Part shown: piece after piece, positions 16,919 to 27,178 of the stretch | Numbering within the stretch: the stretch's first letter is position 1 | Layout of the letters: every line of letters begins with the position of its first letter | NCBI GenBank assembly: GCA_944392985.1 | Contig: CALXYL010000003.1 | Coordinates: 1-64,000, forward strand | From: an uncultured Spirochaetaceae bacterium | GTDB taxonomy: Bacteria > Spirochaetota > Spirochaetia > Sphaerochaetales > Sphaerochaetaceae | DNA: 64,000 nt | Direction of reading: 5' to 3' | Made by a program: the position numbers and the translations under genes | The notes under the pieces: model-generated | Database searches by the model: none | What the model was told of the DNA's origin: nothing | Seen by the model: only the letters and a program-made list of their open reading frames with translations

Positions 16919-19900
16919 ATGGAAAGAAGGGATTTAAGGATACCCCTCCTGACAAGGGAGAGAATAAGGATAAGTGGATCGGTTTTCGCCACGGATGAAG
17001 GGCTTGACCTCATGTACAGGGAGGCCTCCCTTCTCGCTTTCCAGTACAACAGCGAACTAAAGAAGAACGGAGCGGAGGGTGGATTCGTCTCTCCCGGCAA
17101 GCTCCATGCCTCTGCTGTGCTCCATCTCATATACCAGATTGTCCTTTCAGCAAGAATGGGAGACGGCCAGAGTGATTTCTTCACGAGGCGCATAGCGACT
17201 GTCGCCTCGAATGATGAACTATCGAACGCCCTTGGCTTCTACTCAAAGTCATTCCCCTCCCCCGCACTGGAGGAAAGGAAGCCGGACTCACCAACGAGGA
17301 TGGCGGAGGACATGAGGGGATTCTTCATCCATCAGGTGCTTCTGCAGAATCCTGCGCTTCTCGCGGCATCAAAGCCATTTGTCTCCCCGGATCAGATCAT
17401 CTATCCGCCGGAGTGCAAGGCGCTTTCAAGCATCCTCTCCTCATACCCTAAGGATGATCTGAGGAACGGAAAGCCCAACACGGACGACATCTTCACGATG
17501 CTCCAGCTGCCAGCCCGTCTCTATCCGAACTCGCTTGAGGAGCAGATCAGATACATCCTCAGGGAGTGGAGCGCGTTCCTGCCTTCCGACCTGATAAGGC
17601 TCCTTGAGACATCCCTCGACTACATCCACGAGGAGGAGAAGGACAGAGGCGGCGTCGGCGGAGGCGGAGGGCCTACGCAGGTCATAGACTATTCGGACAG
17701 CGACCTGAATGAGTATGAGGCGTTCTCCGATGACTCGAACTGGATGCCCCGTGTTGTCATGATGGCGAAATGCACCCTCGTCTGGCTTGACCAGCTCACG
17801 AAGCAGTACAAGCGCTCAATAACAAGGCTGGACCAGATTCCTGATGAGGAACTTGATGCCCTCAGGGAAAGAGGATTCACAGCGCTCTGGCTCATCGGAC
17901 TCTGGGAAAGGTCTGAGGCATCGAAGAAGATAAAGAACCTCTGCGGCAATCCGGATGCAGAGGCATCGGCGTACTCCCTGAAGGATTATGAGATCGCCTC
18001 ATTGATCGGAGGATGGAGCGCCCTTGAGAACCTCCGCGAGCGCTGCCGCCAGCGCGGTATCCGCCTTGCCTCTGATATGGTTCCAAACCATACGGGAATC
18101 GATGGCAACTGGGTTTATGAGCATCCGGATTACTTCGTGCAGCAGGACTGGCCTCCATTCCCGTCATACACATACAATGGCCCGGATCTCTCAAACAACC
18201 CGGATTACGAGGTGAAGATAGAAGATCACTATTATGACAGGACTGATGCCGCTGTCACGTTCATGCTGCGCAACAGGCATACAGGGCAGACACGGTATAT
18301 CTTCCATGGCAACGATGGCACATCAATGCCCTGGAATGACACTGCTCAGCTGGATTATCTCAATCCAACGACAAGGGAAGCTGTCATACAGAAGATAATC
18401 CATGTCGCGAAGAACTTCCCGATCATCCGCTTCGATGCCGCGATGACTCTTGCAAAGCGTCACATACAGCGCCTTTGGTATCCGAAGCCGGGTCATGGAG
18501 GAGACATCGCAGGAAGGGCACGCTACGCCCTTTCAGACGAGGAATTCAATCGCTGCATACCACAGGAGTTCTGGAGGGAAGTCGTCGACAGGGTTGCTGT
18601 GGAGGCGCCTGACACGCTGCTCCTTGCAGAAGCATTCTGGATGATGGAAGGCTACTTTGTACGTACTCTTGGCATGCACCGCGTCTACAACTCGGCGTTC
18701 ATGAACATGCTGAAGAACCAGGAGAACCAGAAGTACCGCCTCGGGATAAAGAACACGCTGGTCTTTGAGCCTGAGATCCTGAAACGGTATGTCAACTTCA
18801 TGAATAACCCTGACGAGGAGACCGCCATCGCCCAGTTCGGAGACGGGGACAAGTATTTCGCGGTCTGCACTCTGCTTGCAACCCTTCCCGGCCTGCCGAT
18901 GATCGGACACGGCCAGATTGAGGGTTATCATGAGAAATACGGCATGGAATACAGGAGAGCTTACTACAATGAACAGCCGAATGGCTGGCTTGTCGGAGAG
19001 CACTACAGGAGGATCTTCCCGCTCTTCAGGAGACGCTATCTCTTCTCCGGTGTCGACTGCTTCCAGTTCTTCGATTGCTACGGCATGAACGGTGCGGTTG
19101 AGGAATCCATCTACGCATTCGTCAATGGAGCGGGATCGGAGCGCACATTGATCCTCGTCAACAACCGCTATGAGCAATGCGGAGGAACGATCAACGTGTC
19201 CGTTCCCAAGCTGAAGAAGGACAAGGACTCGCGCACGACAGTGACGACAAAGCTCGCCGACAGCCTCGGCCTTTCCTTCGGCGGAAGGAACTACGCACTC
19301 CTTGACTGCTTCTCTGATGGCCTGACATACATCATCCCGTCGATCCAGCTCTATGATGAGGGATTCTCGTTCTCCCTCAATGGCTATGAGGCGCGTGTAT
19401 ATTGGAACATCAGGCAGGTGGAGGATACCGACGGAAGCTATGAAAGGCTCTGGAGGATGTACGGCAGGAAGGGCATCAGCAATATCTCCAAGGCCGTTGC
19501 TCTTCTGCGGCTCGAACCTCTCTTCAAAGCACTTGAACCGCTCAGAGCGCAGGAAACGCTCAAGCATCTTGAGGATCTTGTCAGTGGCCGCCTTTCCAAG
19601 CAGGGAGAGAGGGATCTTCTGCTGTCGATCGCTGAATGCTATTCAACGATCCCTGAAGTGTATGAGGCTCTGGATGAACCGGCAAAGGGACAGATCAGCG
19701 TCATACCAGCAGAGATTGAGCCCAAGCCGATGATCCGCACGGTCAGGACGCTTGCATCCCTTTTCAGGGAGCGCCACGGAAAGGCATTTGCCGCATGGGC
19801 TGGTGCCGACAGCTCGCTTGCCCTGACGCTTGCCTCTGCGCTTGTTCTGCATCCATTCTCAGGTGGACTCTCGATAAGAGGCGCGATGGAGGAAGCCGAC

Positions 19901-20302
19901 AGGCTGCTTATCGATGCCTTCTTTGATTATGAATTCGGAGCGCTTGGACTCTGCGAGAATGAAAGAAGGGCTGTGACCCATGGGGCGGCAATCCTCACCT
20001 CCGCAGGACAGAGCTATGACAAGGACGAGGATCCGCTTACGCTGTTCACGCGCATAGCGAATGATGAAGGCGTGCAGAACCTTGCCCTCTGCAATAAGTA
20101 TCAGGGGGAGATCTGGTACAACAAGGAGCAGATGCAGCGCGCGATACTCCTTTCCGCCCTTGCGTTCGCACTGCTTCCAAAGGCGAAGGATTTCGATGCC
20201 GATGCGTATATCAGCAGTCTCTTTGAGAAGGAAGCTGTGAGCGGATACAGGCTCAGAGAGCTTCTGAGAAGGGAGAAAGATGAGGAGGATACGGTCAGCT
20301 GA
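16919..20302 (+). CDS. Very large GH13 alpha-amylase-family enzyme
   Basis: This 1127-residue protein contains a GH13 barrel flanked by long extra regions. Residues 1-240 are a helical domain not recognised, ending in a glycine-rich linker (GGVGGGGGP). The barrel shows region I DMVPNHT (about 385), region II IIRFDAAM with the nucleophile Asp (about 504), region III LLLAEAF with the acid Glu (about 569) and region IV NFMNNPDEE (about 629). In region IV the usual His before the Asp is Pro. Residues after about 760 are again helical and unassigned. No signal peptide is present, so it acts in the cytoplasm. The substrate is unknown; an alpha-glucan is a reasonable inference. The start has a GAAGG Shine-Dalgarno. 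Confidence 0.85.
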   Translation: MERRDLRIPLLTRERIRISGSVFATDEGLDLMYREASLLAFQYNSELKKNGAEGGFVSPGKLHASAVLHLIYQIVLSARMGDGQSDFFTRRIATVASNDELSNALGFYSKSFPSPALEERKPDSPTRMAEDMRGFFIHQVLLQNPALLAASKPFVSPDQIIYPPECKALSSILSSYPKDDLRNGKPNTDDIFTMLQLPARLYPNSLEEQIRYILREWSAFLPSDLIRLLETSLDYIHEEEKDRGGVGGGGGPTQVIDYSDSDLNEYEAFSDDSNWMPRVVMMAKCTLVWLDQLTKQYKRSITRLDQIPDEELDALRERGFTALWLIGLWERSEASKKIKNLCGNPDAEASAYSLKDYEIASLIGGWSALENLRERCRQRGIRLASDMVPNHTGIDGNWVYEHPDYFVQQDWPPFPSYTYNGPDLSNNPDYEVKIEDHYYDRTDAAVTFMLRNRHTGQTRYIFHGNDGTSMPWNDTAQLDYLNPTTREAVIQKIIHVAKNFPIIRFDAAMTLAKRHIQRLWYPKPGHGGDIAGRARYALSDEEFNRCIPQEFWREVVDRVAVEAPDTLLLAEAFWMMEGYFVRTLGMHRVYNSAFMNMLKNQENQKYRLGIKNTLVFEPEILKRYVNFMNNPDEETAIAQFGDGDKYFAVCTLLATLPGLPMIGHGQIEGYHEKYGMEYRRAYYNEQPNGWLVGEHYRRIFPLFRRRYLFSGVDCFQFFDCYGMNGAVEESIYAFVNGAGSERTLILVNNRYEQCGGTINVSVPKLKKDKDSRTTVTTKLADSLGLSFGGRNYALLDCFSDGLTYIIPSIQLYDEGFSFSLNGYEARVYWNIRQVEDTDGSYERLWRMYGRKGISNISKAVALLRLEPLFKALEPLRAQETLKHLEDLVSGRLSKQGERDLLLSIAECYSTIPEVYEALDEPAKGQISVIPAEIEPKPMIRTVRTLASLFRERHGKAFAAWAGADSSLALTLASALVLHPFSGGLSIRGAMEEADRLLIDAFFDYEFGALGLCENERRAVTHGAAILTSAGQSYDKDEDPLTLFTRIANDEGVQNLALCNKYQGEIWYNKEQMQRAILLSALAFALLPKAKDFDADAYISSLFEKEAVSGYRLRELLRREKDEEDTVS

Positions 20303-20372
20303 TGACCGTATCGCTCCAGCATCATCATATGATGCAACGACTTGTATGGCAGGATGCCTGCATGGTGCAAGA

Positions 20373-20401
20373 TTGACTACAGAATGGAGGTGAAGTATCC
20401 T
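20373..20401 (+). promoter_or_regulatory. Leaderless promoter of the DAACS symporter
   Basis: TTGACT (20373-20378), a 17-base spacer and TATCCT (20396-20401) are followed by six bases and the ATG at 20408. A GGAGG exists at 20386-20390 but is 17 bases from the ATG, too far to serve it, which favours a leaderless message. Confidence 0.65.
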
Positions 20402-20407
20402 TTTCCT

Positions 20408-21655
20408 ATGAAAACGTGGATAACATACATTGCTGCGGTTCTTATGGGCCTTGCAACCTCTTTGCTTTTCGGTTCATTCGCAGCCACGGCTTCGATTCTT
20501 TCGGCTGTATCATCATATCTGATCAGCCTTGGTGTATTCATTGCAATCCCTGTCGTATTCATCACCTTCGCTTCGGGAACAGCTTCGCTGATGAAGGACC
20601 GCAAAGGACACCGCGTTGCTGGAATGGCAGCCCTCTGGTCACTCCTGTCAACTGTGCTTCTCTCATTTGCAGCTGCGCTTGTATTCGTCATCATGCCGGA
20701 GAGCTTCCCCGTCACAAGCTCTGCAGGTAGCGCACCAGGAACGCTTTCTGCCCTTGTTTCATACTCTGTCTCATCCGCAGGAAGCGCGCTGTATCCGCTC
20801 AACGCCCTATGGTCCATCGCTTCGGCAACACGTTTCATCATCTCTGTCATCATCATCTCATGGATCCTCGGGCTCGCACTCAAGCCCTCCGCTGATATCA
20901 TCAGGCCGGCTTATACAACGATGAATTCCTTCTCGGAGGTCATGTACCGCATATCAAGGACATTCTCGGTTTTCGGATTCTTCATCGTATTCCTCTCCTC
21001 CGCCTCCTTCTTCACTACCATGTATCAGGAGAAAACCGTATTCGCCGCACCTGGTTTCATCCTCATGCTGACGTTGTCCGCAGCTGTGGCTGTTTTCGCA
21101 GTGCTTCCCCTCCTCTATGGGGTTTTCACGGGATTCAGGAAGAATCCATACAGCATCCTCTACCGTTCGCTGCCGCAGATGCTCATGGGTCTTTCAACGG
21201 CAAACAGCGTTGCCTCGATCCCTCTTTCGGAAAGCGTTGCCAGGCAGAGCCTTGGTGTACAGAAGCGTGTTGCCTCAACAGCGACACCGCTTTTGAGCGT
21301 GATCGGAAAAGGCGGAAGCGCGGCAATCTCCGTCATTGCGCTTCTCTCGCTGTATATCGCGACAACTGAGACGATGCCTCCAGGGAACGTCATTGCCGTG
21401 ACAGCAGTTGCTGCAGCCCTCGTCTCATTCATCTCCAGTGCAGCAACCGGAACCGAATGCGCCGCGATTACAGTGATCGTGCTCCAGATGCTTGGAATCA
21501 ATCTCTATGGAGCCGAGAACGCAATCATCGCATTCCTTCCGATGCTCTGCGGTATGGGAACTGCTATCGATGCCCTGATCACCGCATACGGAAACAGCAT
21601 CGCCGCGTCAAGCATACAGACAGATGTGGAGATTCCCTATAGGGATACTCTCTGA
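20408..21655 (+). CDS. Divergent DAACS-family sodium symporter
   Basis: This 415-residue inner-membrane protein has about eight hydrophobic segments and two re-entrant-loop-like stretches, as in glutamate/dicarboxylate symporters. The serine-rich first hairpin is represented by GLSTANSVASIPLSES. The second hairpin is ATGTECAAITV. The NMDGT sodium-binding motif expected after TPL is replaced by VIGKGGS, so ion coupling or substrate may differ. Upstream in-frame ATGs (20342, 20384) were rejected because the promoter fits 20408. The stop overlaps the next membrane protein's ATG. Confidence 0.8.
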   Translation: MKTWITYIAAVLMGLATSLLFGSFAATASILSAVSSYLISLGVFIAIPVVFITFASGTASLMKDRKGHRVAGMAALWSLLSTVLLSFAAALVFVIMPESFPVTSSAGSAPGTLSALVSYSVSSAGSALYPLNALWSIASATRFIISVIIISWILGLALKPSADIIRPAYTTMNSFSEVMYRISRTFSVFGFFIVFLSSASFFTTMYQEKTVFAAPGFILMLTLSAAVAVFAVLPLLYGVFTGFRKNPYSILYRSLPQMLMGLSTANSVASIPLSESVARQSLGVQKRVASTATPLLSVIGKGGSAAISVIALLSLYIATTETMPPGNVIAVTAVAAALVSFISSAATGTECAAITVIVLQMLGINLYGAENAIIAFLPMLCGMGTAIDALITAYGNSIAASSIQTDVEIPYRDTL

Positions 21656-22428
21656 TGCCGCAGAAGAAGAAAAAACAATTCTCCATATCCTTGCTGCTGC
21701 AGCTGTTCATCTCTGTTGCATACAGCATAATGCTGGTCCACATGACCATTGTCCTTCTCCAGAGGAGGACAGTGGGGTGGTTCATCAACATGATGGTCTA
21801 CCTTCCGCAGCTGGTCATAATCATCGCTTCCATTGTCTTTCTTTTCATACTCCGCCTGCGTCACAGAACACACAGCATAGACAGCACCCTGCTTCCGATG
21901 CTCTTCACGTTCATCGCACTGGAAGCAACGATGATAGTCCCCCTCTATACGGAAGTGACAGGCATTGCGATCATGGCCCCGAATGCGGTCGTCATCATAG
22001 AGCGCTTCGCGATCATCGCGGCGGCAGTGGTATTCGTATTCACTTCCATTCAGTTCTATGGGACAAACCTCTCAAGGCTTAAGCTCTACCTTTCCATCAC
22101 AATAGGCGCCGCTCTGTATCTTGCGCTGGCAATGCCTATGAACACCGGAACAACAGACCTGACACAGCTCAAGGTATTCTCATCTTCCTATGATGCACTC
22201 CTTCTTGCCGCGATCTGCTGCATCTATCTCGTCTCCATCGCGACATATATCGCTGCTGTGGCAAAGGACAGATCAACGCACAGCCTCTCCCGCGCGGGAG
22301 CCTTCATACTCATGATGCTCGGCAACTTCTTCTCAATGAGCAACACGGTCATTCCTTCCGTCGTATCCGCAGTGCTCTATCTTTCAGGCATCATAATGCT
22401 GTCCATGACATCGAAGAATACATTCTGA
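21655..22428 (+). CDS. Polytopic membrane protein coupled to the symporter
   Basis: This is a 257-residue protein with about eight hydrophobic helices and a basic N-terminus (MPQKKKKQ). No motif is recognised. Its ATG overlaps the symporter stop (TGATG), so the two are translationally coupled and may act together. It could be an accessory subunit or a sensor without soluble output domains. The function is unknown. Confidence 0.7.
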   Translation: MPQKKKKQFSISLLLQLFISVAYSIMLVHMTIVLLQRRTVGWFINMMVYLPQLVIIIASIVFLFILRLRHRTHSIDSTLLPMLFTFIALEATMIVPLYTEVTGIAIMAPNAVVIIERFAIIAAAVVFVFTSIQFYGTNLSRLKLYLSITIGAALYLALAMPMNTGTTDLTQLKVFSSSYDALLLAAICCIYLVSIATYIAAVAKDRSTHSLSRAGAFILMMLGNFFSMSNTVIPSVVSAVLYLSGIIMLSMTSKNTF

Positions 22429-22444
22429 ATCGTACTGATTGTAC

Positions 22445-22454
22445 GGGGGGGGGG
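22445..22454 (+). repeat. G10 homopolymer next to a lipoprotein promoter
   Basis: Ten consecutive G residues lie between GTAC and TACC, four bases before a candidate -35 (TTGACC) of the surface lipoprotein gene. It is the longest homopolymer noticed in the window. Poly-G tracts in spirochaete promoters are known to change length and alter expression, for example upstream of some Treponema pallidum tpr genes. Confidence 0.85.
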
Positions 22455-22458
22455 TACC

Positions 22459-22487
22459 TTGACCCCATGGTTATCATTCCTCATCAT
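22459..22487 (+). promoter_or_regulatory. Candidate promoter of the RCC1-repeat lipoprotein
   Basis: TTGACC (22459-22464), a 17-base spacer and CATCAT (22482-22487) precede an AGGGGG and the ATG at 22505. The -10 is poor, so the position is tentative. The G10 tract abuts its upstream side. Confidence 0.45.
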
Positions 22488-22504
22488 CAGGCTAGGGGGA
22501 AACC

Positions 22505-25426
22505 ATGTTCAGGCATCTCTATAGGTTCATGGCAATTTCGCTGCTGCTGTTCTCGGCAAGCTCCTGTCTCTTCGATTCCGGGCAGAAGAACATCGTTGTC
22601 TATCATGACTGGAAGGGCAATGCTGTTGAGACATATACATTCACATTCGGCACACCGGTACCAGAGGCATCTGAGAAATACCCTGCCCCAAATGGTTTCT
22701 GGGGTGGATGGACCTACTATGACCACACAGGAGGCGAAATCCCTCCATCCGACGGTGATAGTACCCCTATAGGCTACGGAGATGTCAACGCATACCCCGA
22801 CAAGGGAATCACCGTAACCTACGATCTGAAAGGCCTCGTCATTGCAGAGTATTCATTATCAGCAGGGGAAGCAGTAACAGAACCTACAAAGGAATCCCAT
22901 CCAGATGCCCCTTGGCCGGATCCTTTCTATTTCTGGACATACTATGATGAGGAAAGCAATCCGGTAGAATACAGCCCTGGAGATGAAACCAGTGAAAGCA
23001 TTGTTGCCTATCCTTATTATCCGACGAAGTACGGGGAAATCGTTTTCATATACATCTTCGAGGGTGGTTTTGAAAGCCTTGGCAACGACTACAACTACTA
23101 CATCGTGGAATTCTCCCCCATAGAGTTCCCTTCTCCAGAGGAAGTGAAGGACTATACCTTCAGCGGATGGTACTACGATGAGGATCTCACAAGGAAAGTC
23201 GAGGGAGAAGTGCTTTATGACCCGGAGACGACCACTGTTTTCTATGGACTTTACACTGCAGATTTTGAATACCATGAAGTGACCTTTGAATATGAGGATG
23301 GCACAGAGGCGGCAAAATATGTCAAGGATGGAGAAACCATCACATTCCCAGAGGACCCGGAATCAGATTCCTCCAAGAGCTTTGCAGGATGGTATGACGC
23401 CTCTGGCAGGAGATACTACAAAGAGACAGTCGTGACGGAGGATACTCACCTTGAAGCCCGCTTTGTCGAGCCGAAGATCATCGATGGGTATATCACTCCG
23501 GCAAAGAGCATATTCCTTCTCAATGATGGTCGGATGTTCTGTAACGGGGAAGAAGGTGAAAACGAATTCTTCAGCGAAGATGGCATCACAGCCTTCGCAT
23601 ACTACAACGGCACAAACTGGCTTTTCAGGAGCGATGGATACTATGTCCATGATAAGGATCTGACTAAGACCAATAGTCTAGGACATGTCATCGATGCAGA
23701 TTCAGCAATAGGCAGCAACAGCAATTTCCTTGTTGTGCTGAACGATGAAGGAAAAGCATATATTAATGGGAATTTCCGAGGCACGGCATACTCATTCGAG
23801 GCCATTGATATTGATGATAAGATCGTGAAGATAGATGCCGCGTGGGACACGATAGCTGCGCTGACTGAAAGCGGTGATCTCTATCTCTGGGGAAAGACTT
23901 TCAAAAGAGGAGCGCAGGGTGAATCATCAAGCGTAAGCGAGTTCCCAAAGAAAGTTGCAGGCGGCGTCAGGGACTTCGATATAGGAAACCACGCTGTTGC
24001 GTATATTGATGGAAACGATGCGCTCTGGTTCAGAGGCGTCATGGGACTCTATGACCACTCAACAACCTACTTTGACTTTGAAAAGCTGAAGGATGGTGTC
24101 TCCTCTGTATATGTCTGCGAGGACGAGAACGATGCCAACATCAATTACATCCTTGTCTCTACCAATGCTGGCGATATCATGATACAGGGGTATGAGAATT
24201 TCCTGCAGGATGGATACGGCAGATATGATTCATTGACAAAGCTCTATGAGGGTTTCGACTGCATCGAGGAGTTCCAGGGAACACCTGCCTTCCTCAGGGG
24301 AAATGATCTCTATCTTCTTCATCCTCCTCTTGATTACGAGATGACTGAAGAAGAGCCCTACCTCGTGTTCCCTGATAAGACAATCACAGCTGTGGCATCA
24401 AATGGGAGCACCAATCTTGCGCTTGCAGAGAACGGCGATCTCTATTATTTCGGAAAGGATATCTTCCATACCGATACTGAGATCATGCCTTCCCCTGCCC
24501 TGTTGATAAGCAATGTGAAGATAGTGACAGAGCATTTCATCATAACCAATGATGACAGGATCCATGCTTATGGTTACACAGAGAGGATGCCGGAGCATAT
24601 CGCTACAAAAGGGGATATCAAGAGTATCAAGGGGCCTTACATTCTCTTTGGGGATCATACGCTCTACTCCTATGAGGATGGGAACTGGAAGCAGGTAATC
24701 ACCTCCGTCAAAGACTTCTTCATCAATGACATGGAACAGCTCGTTGCCTATACGGACAATGATACAGGCGTCTATTGGTCAACGGGTACACAGAATTCAG
24801 GCTCCTTCCAGGAAACTGGAATGATGGATGTCGTTGAGGCGTATGCAGATGGATACATAGATCTCGTGCTTCTTTCCAATGGGGAGCTCTGGTGGAGAGG
24901 AAGCAATCGCTCAGACTATAGCCTGTCACCGGCTGTAAACGATGGAAGCTACTCGAAGGAGTTTGAACGTCTTGGCAAGGATATGACATTCAAGCAGATG
25001 GTTGCTATCGACAATCATTTCCTCTTCATCAATAAATATGGCCGCATCGTGGCGCTTGGTGCAGGACAGAGTTATAACAACAGCATCGGCTTCAATGGAG
25101 CAGAAGTATCAGATTATGGATTCTGGCATCTCGAAAGGCTTACTGATACGGTATTCACAGAGATCATCCCACGGACACAGGCTAAAAACGTTATTGCGCT
25201 GACTTCAAATGACATCTATGAAGTGGAGAATAATTCCCAGCTGCAGCCCAGGAATCACGGCAGGACATACACCTCTGCCACTAACCGTTCCAGCACTCTT
25301 GCCCTCACAGAAGATGGAAAACTCTATTCCTGGGGATCCAACAGGGACGGAACCATCGGCAACGGCATGAGCGGATACACCTATGTGCCTCTGCTGATGG
25401 ATATCTCCCTGGTCTATGACAGATGA
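22505..25426 (+). CDS. Surface lipoprotein with InlB-like and RCC1-like repeats
   Basis: This is a 973-residue protein. The signal MFRHLYRFMAISLLLF is followed by the lipobox SASSC (Cys about 21). Residues about 30-325 hold three to four repeats of the Listeria-Bacteroides (InlB B-repeat, Flg_new) type, ending in phrases such as FSGWYYDEDLTRKV and FAGWYDASGRRYY. Residues about 330-973 are a chain of roughly 50-residue RCC1-like propeller repeats (GDLYLWGKTFKRG, GDLYYFGKDIF, GKLYSWGSNRDGTIGNG). The layout is that of an adhesin or ligand-binding surface protein; this is inferred. A G10 tract lies upstream and a terminator downstream. Confidence 0.85.
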   Translation: MFRHLYRFMAISLLLFSASSCLFDSGQKNIVVYHDWKGNAVETYTFTFGTPVPEASEKYPAPNGFWGGWTYYDHTGGEIPPSDGDSTPIGYGDVNAYPDKGITVTYDLKGLVIAEYSLSAGEAVTEPTKESHPDAPWPDPFYFWTYYDEESNPVEYSPGDETSESIVAYPYYPTKYGEIVFIYIFEGGFESLGNDYNYYIVEFSPIEFPSPEEVKDYTFSGWYYDEDLTRKVEGEVLYDPETTTVFYGLYTADFEYHEVTFEYEDGTEAAKYVKDGETITFPEDPESDSSKSFAGWYDASGRRYYKETVVTEDTHLEARFVEPKIIDGYITPAKSIFLLNDGRMFCNGEEGENEFFSEDGITAFAYYNGTNWLFRSDGYYVHDKDLTKTNSLGHVIDADSAIGSNSNFLVVLNDEGKAYINGNFRGTAYSFEAIDIDDKIVKIDAAWDTIAALTESGDLYLWGKTFKRGAQGESSSVSEFPKKVAGGVRDFDIGNHAVAYIDGNDALWFRGVMGLYDHSTTYFDFEKLKDGVSSVYVCEDENDANINYILVSTNAGDIMIQGYENFLQDGYGRYDSLTKLYEGFDCIEEFQGTPAFLRGNDLYLLHPPLDYEMTEEEPYLVFPDKTITAVASNGSTNLALAENGDLYYFGKDIFHTDTEIMPSPALLISNVKIVTEHFIITNDDRIHAYGYTERMPEHIATKGDIKSIKGPYILFGDHTLYSYEDGNWKQVITSVKDFFINDMEQLVAYTDNDTGVYWSTGTQNSGSFQETGMMDVVEAYADGYIDLVLLSNGELWWRGSNRSDYSLSPAVNDGSYSKEFERLGKDMTFKQMVAIDNHFLFINKYGRIVALGAGQSYNNSIGFNGAEVSDYGFWHLERLTDTVFTEIIPRTQAKNVIALTSNDIYEVENNSQLQPRNHGRTYTSATNRSSTLALTEDGKLYSWGSNRDGTIGNGMSGYTYVPLLMDISLVYDR

Positions 25427-25441
25427 AGGATTAGATACTGA

Positions 25442-25475
25442 AAGAGCCACCGGTCTCCCGATGGCTCTTGTCTTT
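25442..25475 (+). terminator. Bidirectional terminator between lipoprotein and gpmI
   Basis: AAGAGCCA (25442-25449) pairs with TGGCTCTT (25462-25469), followed by GTCTTTGTC on the plus strand and TTTC on the minus strand. It separates two convergent genes. Confidence 0.7.
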
Positions 25476-25488
25476 GTCCTGATGAGCA

Positions 25489-27138
25489 TCAATTCATATT
25501 GACGATACTCTTGTCATAATCCTCTGGCGGAATATAGCCGAGAAGGCTCATGCAGGTTGCTGCGATAGACGAGATGCCAAGCCCTTCATTGAGGGTTGTG
25601 GAATACTCTCCCTTGTACTCGGGATCATAGATGATGCATGGCACAGGGTTGAGCGAATGGGATGTCTTAGCCTTTGGATCTCCATTCTCCTTCCTCTTCA
25701 CTTCCCCCTTCTTGTCATGCTCATACATATCATCAGCATTGCCGTGATCAGCTGTGATGACCATGATTCCACCGGCTTTCTCGATAGCTTCCTTCAGCCT
25801 TCCGATCTGGAGATCCATTCCTTCCATGGAGCAGACAACAGCTTCAAAGACGCCTGTATGGCCGACCATATCGCCATTGGGGAAGTTGAGCTTGATGAAA
25901 TCCCACTTGCCGCTTTCGATTTCCTCGATTACACGGTCCGTGATCTCTGCACACTTCATCCATGGCCTCTGCTCAAACGGAACCTTGTCTGAAGGGATCT
26001 CGACATACTCCTCCAGCCTCTCATCGAACTTGCCGGAGCGGTTGCCATTGAAGAAGTACGTTACATGGCCGAACTTCTGAGTCTCTGAAATCGAGAACTG
26101 CTTCACCCCTGATGCGCAGAGATACTCTGCCATGACACGATCGATAGCAGGAGGGGAAACAAGATACTGATGAGGAATATGGAGGTCGCCATCATATTCC
26201 ATCATTCCGGCATACTCCACCTTCGGCCATCTCTTCCTGTCGAACTCATTGAAATCAGGCTCATCGAATGCCCTGGAAAGCTCAATCGCCCTATCTCCGC
26301 GGAAATTATAGAGAATAACAGAATCCCCATCCCCGATCGTTCCGATCGGCTTGCCATCCTTGGCAATGACGAATGCAGGGAGATCCTGATCGATTGCACC
26401 GGTTTCCGCCCTGAGCGTCTCAATAGCCTCATGCGCTGATGAGAACATCCTGCCCTCTCCAAGCACATGCGTCTCCCAGCCACGCTTCACCATATCCCAG
26501 TCGGCATTGTAGCGATCCATTGTGATCACCATCCTTCCACCGCCTGATGCGATAGCTGCATCGAATGTTCCATCGGCGGAAAGCTCCTTGAGGAAATCAG
26601 CGAAAGGATCGAAATAATCCAGAGCGGACATCTCACCTACATCACGGCCATCAAGCAGAGCATGAACGCGTACCTTCTTCACGCCTTCCTTCTTCGCTTC
26701 CGTGACCATTGCCTTCAGGTGATCGATATGGGAATGGACGTTTCCATCGGAAAGAAGCCCGATGAAATGGAGAGTGGATCCCTTCTCCTTTACATTGGCT
26801 ATGAGCTTCTGCCATGTGCTTCCCTTGAACATATCGCCTGATGAAATGGCATTGGAAACGAGCTTTGCACCCTGCGCGAAAACCCTTCCGCATCCCATTG
26901 CGTTATGTCCTACCTCGCTGTTGCCCATATCAGCATCTGAAGGAAGGCCGACAGCCGTACCATGTGCCTTCAGCTTCGTCCATGGGCAGGAAGCATAGAG
27001 CGCATCGAGATTCTTCGTCATGGATGCAGCAACCGCATCCCCGTCCTTATACTTTCCGAAGCCAACACCATCCATGATGACAAGCATCACAGGACCGCGG
27101 CGCTGGATCCTTCCATTCTTCTTCAGTGGTTCAACCAT
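25489..27138 (-). CDS. gpmI: Cofactor-independent phosphoglycerate mutase
   Basis: This 549-residue glycolytic enzyme interconverts 3- and 2-phosphoglycerate in a metal-dependent way. The alkaline-phosphatase-type metal sites are visible: IMDGVGFG (Asp about 23), the phosphoserine loop MGNSEVGHNAMG (Ser about 74), and VITADHGNADDMY near the C-terminus. The ATG at 27138 has a GAGGTG eight bases upstream; GTG at 27147 is in frame but less well placed. It follows aminopeptidase P by about 40 bases and may share its transcript. Confidence 0.95.
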   Translation of the reverse strand: MVEPLKKNGRIQRRGPVMLVIMDGVGFGKYKDGDAVAASMTKNLDALYASCPWTKLKAHGTAVGLPSDADMGNSEVGHNAMGCGRVFAQGAKLVSNAISSGDMFKGSTWQKLIANVKEKGSTLHFIGLLSDGNVHSHIDHLKAMVTEAKKEGVKKVRVHALLDGRDVGEMSALDYFDPFADFLKELSADGTFDAAIASGGGRMVITMDRYNADWDMVKRGWETHVLGEGRMFSSAHEAIETLRAETGAIDQDLPAFVIAKDGKPIGTIGDGDSVILYNFRGDRAIELSRAFDEPDFNEFDRKRWPKVEYAGMMEYDGDLHIPHQYLVSPPAIDRVMAEYLCASGVKQFSISETQKFGHVTYFFNGNRSGKFDERLEEYVEIPSDKVPFEQRPWMKCAEITDRVIEEIESGKWDFIKLNFPNGDMVGHTGVFEAVVCSMEGMDLQIGRLKEAIEKAGGIMVITADHGNADDMYEHDKKGEVKRKENGDPKAKTSHSLNPVPCIIYDPEYKGEYSTTLNEGLGISSIAATCMSLLGYIPPEDYDKSIVNMN

Positions 27139-27178
27139 ATGATTCACCTCACATCATCAATCAATATAATGGATTGCC

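What the first reader, a model, noticed from the sequence alone, without database searches (positions are those of the whole stretch)
22445..22505. G10 tract at the promoter of a large RCC1/InlB-repeat surface lipoprotein
A ten-G run sits four bases before a candidate -35, about 50 bases before the start of a 973-residue lipoprotein. Poly-G tracts in spirochaete promoters vary in length and switch surface-protein expression. No homopolymer of this length was noticed elsewhere in the window, and the protein has the look of an adhesin.
Basis: partly seen in the sequence, partly recalled or inferred. Interest (0 to 1): 0.66.

Follow-up and report, generated by a model that had tools for sequence, protein, structure and literature searches.

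The report
Poly-G promoter tract before lipoprotein gene
A run of ten G's just upstream of a surface-lipoprotein gene in an uncultured spirochaete belongs to a genus-wide set of slippery poly-G promoters that probably switch surface lipoproteins on and off, although this particular copy has lost one of the usual promoter elements.

Summary
The G10 run (22445-22454) is real and is the only homopolymer of 7 or more in the window. Its genome holds 22 G-runs of 8-10, far more than the decline from G6 to G7 predicts. Ten lie inside one promoter type, TTGAC-N10/11-G8-10-TAnnnT, in front of lipoprotein genes. The same architecture occurs 254 times in 36 of 48 genomes of the genus, against 0 for the reversed pattern. 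Copies with identical flanks differ only in G number, so the tract is the fast-changing part. His geometry is probably wrong: in the family the tract is the spacer between -35 and -10, TACCTT after the window's tract is the -10, and his '-35' (TTGACC) scores no better than chance. The window's copy is atypical: no -35 is recognisable, the RCC1/InlB-repeat gene is absent from the 47 other species, and the unit is a roughly 3-kb insertion that upstream transcription could also reach. Without reads or a second strain, switching at this tract is inferred. The mechanism matches T. pallidum tp0126 and meningococcal porA. What looks new is genus-wide use for lipoproteins, partly as shared promoter-leader cassettes.

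The parts
22445..22454 (+). G10 tract, read as part of a promoter spacer
   Evidence: same position class as 10 canonical poly-G promoters of the genome
22455..22460 (+). TACCTT, putative -10 (TAnnnT directly 3' of the tract); identical to the -10 of the canonical promoter at G000:C4:30351
   Evidence: 424 of 63988 hexamers of the window score as well, so modest evidence on its own
22430..22435 (+). TCGTAC, where the family has TTGACA/G (spacer 19); only 2 of 6 consensus bases, so the -35 is degenerate or lost
22431..22445 (+). inverted repeat CGTAC-TGATT-GTACG in place of the -35; possible operator or chance
   Evidence: sequence; forms a hairpin, but the whole fold is no better than shuffles
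22459..22464 (+).
   Evidence: the promoter-like hit (17 nt to CATCAT, 22482-22487) is at chance frequency
22494..22499 (+). AGGGGG, probable ribosome-binding site
   Evidence: sequence, 5 nt before ATG
22505..25426 (+). 973-aa lipoprotein with Flg_new (InlB-type) and RCC1 repeats; found only in this species of the genus
25442..25469 (+). GC-rich hairpin after the lipoprotein gene, followed by GTCTTTG; possible terminator (weak T tail, not called by the scan)
21655..22428 (+). conserved membrane protein (found in all 48 genomes of the genus); its stop codon is 16 nt before the tract, with no terminator between
20342..21655 (+). SDF (sodium:dicarboxylate symporter) family protein, likely same operon
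16919..20302 (+). alpha-amylase-family protein, likely same operon
25489..27147 (-). phosphoglycerate mutase (iPGM), convergent; directly adjacent to the 21655-22428 orthologue in relatives, so the lipoprotein unit is an insertion

Best explanation
The G10 tract is one of the genome's many poly-G contingency tracts. In the canonical form the tract makes up the 3' half of the spacer between a TTGAC -35 and a TAnnnT -10 of a sigma-70-type promoter for a lipoprotein gene. Slipped-strand mispairing during replication adds or removes G's, changes the -35/-10 distance, and so moves the promoter between strong and weak states in different cells. Shown here: the architecture, its excess over chance, its link to lipoproteins, and length differences between copies with identical flanks. 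Inferred: slippage as the cause, the effect of length on transcription, and the purpose (surface variation). For the window's own tract the same role is inferred from its position, the TACCTT directly after it and the lipoprotein behind it. Because its -35 has been lost or altered, this copy is probably a weak, activator-dependent or decaying version.
For: Genome: 22 runs of G8-G10 with a peak at 9-10. Ten are TTGAC-N10/11-G8-10-TAnnnT, none of the TTGAC-N9-11-G6 hits has fewer than 8 G's, reversed control 0, and lipoprotein genes follow. Genus: 254 matches in 36 of 48 genomes, reversed control 0 in all 48. Lipobox: 46 of 50 promoters against 3 of 49 genes of the window, p about 1e-19. Length variability: of 24 promoter pairs alike downstream, 16 differ in G number; of 8 pairs without any difference in 70-110 flanking bases, 5 differ in G number, e.g. 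L273 G8 and L275 G9 with 0 of 110 flank differences; tract lengths in the sample are 7-12. Two coding tracts of the same genome sit in an out-of-frame state after the signal peptide (C4:32559 and C20:30157, both G8), as expected of contingency loci. Precedent in a spirochaete: T. pallidum tp0126, poly-G between -35 and -10, best at a total spacing of 17 (PMC7864442).
Against: At this locus no -35 is recognisable at any spacing from 14 to 24; the best has 3 of 6 matches, at 14 and 24. The TAnnnT match alone has a chance of about 1 in 100. The commonest spacing in the genus is 19, not the 17 usually best, and which length is ON is unknown. MutS is present in 47 of 48 genomes, including this one, so slippage is not raised by loss of that repair protein. 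No reads, second strain or transcription data were available.
Confidence: 0.62

Rival explanations
1. Relic or passenger: the lipoprotein unit was inserted between two conserved genes, its poly-G promoter has lost the -35, and the gene is now expressed mainly by read-through from the amylase / SDF / membrane-protein operon, so the tract varies without much effect.
For: No recognisable -35; the tract starts 16 nt after the upstream stop codon and no terminator lies between, while relatives have 37-96 nt between the upstream gene and iPGM, several with a hairpin-like sequence; a hairpin follows the lipoprotein gene.
Against: A pure homopolymer of exactly the family's length (G10) next to an intact TAnnnT would be expected to erode if it had no function; operon read-through is not shown.
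Confidence: 0.22
2. One reading: the promoter is TTGACC-17-CATCAT and the tract lies just upstream of the -35, acting like a variable spacer for an activator (as in opc-like or fim-like promoters).
For: The hexamers exist with a 17-nt spacer.
Against: Hits of this quality occur at chance frequency in the region (5 found, 4.8 expected); only 1 of 50 family promoters has TTGAC just 3' of the tract; it ignores the TAnnnT that follows the tract throughout the family.
Confidence: 0.08
3. The poly-G spacer is a fixed structural or protein-binding element of a lipoprotein-specific promoter class (a shared regulator or DNA shape), not a switch.
For: The total spacing clusters at 19 (56 of 121 sampled) and the two main leads compensate (N9 with G10, N10 with G9); the flank is conserved (consensus ACC before the tract).
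Against: Copies with identical flanks carry 8 or 9, or 9 or 10 G's, and near-identical ones 8 and 11; spacings run from 15 to 23; other spirochaete groups use the same tract with spacings near 14-16 or 18.
Confidence: 0.13
4. Chance homopolymer or assembly artefact.
For: Homopolymers are a common error class; the assembly is a fragmented draft (39 contigs).
Against: The excess at G9-10, the fixed context and the reversed controls of 0.
Confidence: 0.03

Closest known systems
Treponema pallidum tp0126 (OmpW homologue) promoter
   Same: Poly-G of variable length between -35 and -10 of a promoter for a surface protein gene in a spirochaete; total spacing sets activity (PMC7864442).
   Different: One outer-membrane-protein gene there; here a genus-wide set, nearly all in front of lipoproteins. 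The window's copy lacks the -35.
Treponema pallidum tprE/G/J and tprL poly-G promoters
   Same: Poly-G in the promoter, length affects transcription (8 or fewer G's permissive for tprE/G/J; PMC7864442).
   Different: In tprL the tract overlaps the -10 region and does not change the spacing; the targets are Tpr proteins.
Neisseria meningitidis porA promoter
   Same: Poly-G in the -35/-10 spacer; length sets expression (described in PMC7864442).
   Different: Unrelated bacterium, single porin gene.
Mycoplasma hyorhinis vlp family
   Same: A homopolymer in the promoter of every member of a surface-lipoprotein family switches each one on or off (PMC10502178).
   Different: Poly-A instead of poly-G; a single vlp family. 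In the spirochaete genus the switch sits on many different lipoproteins, and in some genomes one promoter-leader block is shared by proteins with strongly divergent mature parts.

Membership tests
poly-G spacer phase-variable promoter (tp0126/porA type), genus-wide class | homopolymeric G tract between recognisable -35 and -10 | tested here: met
   TTGAC...G7+TAnnnT 254 times, reversed control 0
poly-G spacer phase-variable promoter (tp0126/porA type), genus-wide class | tract length varies while the flanks stay constant | tested here: met
   between paralogous copies within genomes; not between strains or reads
poly-G spacer phase-variable promoter (tp0126/porA type), genus-wide class | tract length changes transcription | not testable with these tools
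   needs reporter or RNA data
poly-G spacer phase-variable promoter, the window's own copy | tract directly followed by TAnnnT and a downstream surface or lipoprotein gene | tested here: met
   TACCTT, ATG 50 nt downstream, lipobox Cys21
poly-G spacer phase-variable promoter, the window's own copy | -35 hexamer at workable distance upstream of the tract | tested here: not met
   no hexamer with more than 3 of 6 matches at spacings 14-24
poly-G spacer phase-variable promoter, the window's own copy | variable length in the population | not testable with these tools
   no reads and no second strain; no orthologue in 47 other species
Bacterial lipoprotein with RCC1 and InlB-type repeats | lipobox, RCC1 and Flg_new domains | tested here: met

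The most novel reading that the evidence does not exclude
The genus carries a modular switch: a block of about 100-130 nt (-35, poly-G spacer, -10, ribosome-binding site, lipoprotein leader up to the Cys codon) that is copied or homogenised by recombination onto strongly divergent lipoprotein genes, giving each an independent on/off state. In relative G056 the blocks reach 100% DNA identity over 70 nt downstream of the tract while the mature proteins share about 30% identity over most of their length. The window's copy would be an outlier that has lost part of the block.
Probability: 0.45. Interest if true: 0.7.

Novelty: new member of a known kind. Interest (0 to 1): 0.52.

Why it matters
Poly-G promoter switching in spirochaetes is known mainly from a few outer-membrane-protein genes of the syphilis agent. 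Here it appears as a standard promoter of lipoprotein genes in a genus of uncultured spirochaetes, with up to 14 canonical copies per genome. If the switches work, one population could display a very large number of surface combinations, and metagenomic reads could measure it without culture. It also suggests that such switching is widespread in this class (36 of 198 genomes sampled across it, from 14 of 92 genera, had a match) and not confined to a pathogen.

Tried and rejected
Orthologues of the lipoprotein to compare tract lengths at the same locus: none in 47 other species, and no other RCC1_2 protein in the genus. Loss of mismatch repair as a cause: rejected, MutS present in 47 of 48. RNA structure of the leader region as an attenuator: fold no better than shuffles. 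Ordinary (non-poly-G) promoters of the genus as a yardstick for best spacing: too few matches, not above the reversed control. Literature: no paper in the held library combines Sphaerochaeta with phase variation or poly-G; T. pallidum papers found.

Full report
WHAT IS THERE. The window holds ten G's at 22445-22454, four bases before TTGACC and 50 bases before the ATG of a 973-residue lipoprotein. No other homopolymer of 7 or more of any base occurs in the 64 kb. Pfam finds RCC1 repeats and one Listeria-Bacteroides (InlB-type, Flg_new) repeat in the protein, and a sequence search of solved structures gives RCC1-type proteins.

MORE THAN CHANCE. The genome in which the window lies (1.96 Mb, 39 contigs) holds 22 runs of 8 or more G's counting both strands: four of 8, thirteen of 9, five of 10, none longer. 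GGGGGG occurs at 161 positions, of which these 22 runs explain 89. In the part of that list printed place by place, runs of 6, 7, 8, 9 and 10 number 24, 3, 3, 9 and 5: a clear second peak instead of a geometric decline.

WHAT THE TRACTS ARE. Ten of the 22 share one context: TTGAC, ten or eleven bases, G8-G10, then TAnnnT, then a lipoprotein gene. One more promoter of this kind has an interrupted, shorter tract (GAG7) and is not among the 22. Eight others of the 22 lie inside open frames, mostly just after the signal peptide; two of those, at C4:32559 and C20:30157, are in an out-of-frame state at G8. The rest are the window's tract, one upstream of a possible pilus-chaperone-like gene (C4:95520), one inside an acyltransferase-like frame (C8:22528) and one of unclear context (C34:1819); these last gene names were read from the sequence and not searched. 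In the promoter set the tract fills the 3' part of the spacer between -35 and -10.

GENUS-WIDE. The pattern TTGACN{8,18}G7TAnnnT occurs 254 times (sum of the per-genome counts) in 36 of 48 genomes of the genus, up to 14 per genome, and its reversed version 0 times in all 48. In a sample of 198 genomes of the class, 36 have a match, with further concentrations in two other families, where spacings are shorter (about 14-16, and 18). Of 50 promoters whose gene could be read, 46 precede a lipoprotein by a simple lipobox rule, against 3 of 49 genes of the window.

LENGTH VARIES. Among promoter copies within one genome that are alike downstream of the tract, 16 of 24 pairs differ in G number; among 8 pairs without any difference in 70-110 flanking bases, 5 differ. 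In genome G056 nearly identical promoters carry 8, 9 or 11 G's. The sampled tract lengths run from 7 to 12 and total spacings from 15 to 23 with a mode of 19. This is what slippage predicts and what a fixed structural element does not, although it compares copies and not cells of one strain.

THE WINDOW'S COPY. Applying the family layout, TACCTT at 22455-22460 is the -10 (the same hexamer as at the canonical promoter C4:30351) and transcription would start near 22467. The -35 should lie at 22430-22435, but reads TCGTAC; no spacing from 14 to 24 gives more than 3 of 6 matches. An inverted repeat CGTAC-TGATT-GTACG occupies the place.

WHERE IT CAME FROM. The upstream membrane protein is found in all 48 genomes. 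In several relatives it is followed after only 37-96 nt by the convergent phosphoglycerate mutase gene, without poly-G. In the window 3060 nt with the tract and the lipoprotein lie between them. The lipoprotein has no orthologue in the 47 other species and no other RCC1_2 protein was found in the genus. The unit is therefore an insertion or a late gain, placed so that upstream transcription could run into it; no terminator is predicted between.

MECHANISM. Best reading: slipped-strand mispairing alters the -35/-10 distance and thereby promoter strength, as reported for T. pallidum tp0126 and meningococcal porA (PMC7864442). Shown here are architecture, excess, lipoprotein linkage and length differences between copies. 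Slippage in the population, the effect on transcription and the benefit are inferred. MutS is present, so loss of that repair protein is not the driver.

BEYOND THE FINDING. In G056, G037 and G040 the promoter, leader region and signal peptide are shared almost letter for letter between lipoproteins whose mature parts have diverged: protein identity about 30% over most of the length was measured in G056, and ungapped DNA identity falls to about chance soon after the leader in all three. The ungapped comparison understates the shared block for copies with insertions in the leader region, and contigs often end inside the block, as expected for true repeats. This resembles the vlp family of Mycoplasma hyorhinis, where every gene has a promoter homopolymer (PMC10502178), and is the most novel part of what was seen.

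LIMITS. No sequencing reads, no second strain of this species, no transcription data; one genome per species; draft assemblies; tract lengths are consensus calls. The lipobox rule is a simple pattern and the window's 49 genes are a small background. The promoter sample for lipobox and flank comparisons was chosen from genomes rich in such promoters.

Noticed in passing
L266-L277 (genome G056), L287/L289/L291 (G037), L280/L281 (G040): Promoter-leader blocks of roughly 100-130 nt shared at up to 100% DNA identity between lipoprotein genes with strongly divergent mature parts; contigs often end inside the block.
   Followed up: partly
G000:C4:32559 (L036) and G000:C20:30157 (L044): G8 tracts just after the signal peptide leave a lipoprotein gene and an outer-membrane-like protein gene out of frame, as in an OFF state of a contingency locus.
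   Followed up: partly
G000:C7:5391 and C7:7660 (L040): Two nearly identical outer-membrane-like genes, each with G9 directly after the signal peptide.
   Followed up: no
window 22431-22445: Inverted repeat CGTAC-TGATT-GTACG where the -35 should be, with a third GTAC (22454-22457) overlapping the 3' end of the tract.
   Followed up: no
G004:C11:20167, G048:C86:3807, G045:C12:5871: Other tracts of the form TAC-G9/10-TAAAAT without TTGAC upstream, so the window's copy is not the only one lacking the usual -35.
   Followed up: no
G221, G215, G164 (same class, another family), loci L306-L316: The same poly-G promoter architecture with shorter spacers (mostly 14-16) and -10s closer to consensus, often before lipoproteins.
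   Followed up: partly
L063, L070 (Alphaproteobacteria bacterium Emb289P3bin18) and L069 (Lentisphaerae bacterium): Several TTGAC-N10-G9-TA sites in one genome outside the spirochaetes; may be independent use of the same design.
   Followed up: no
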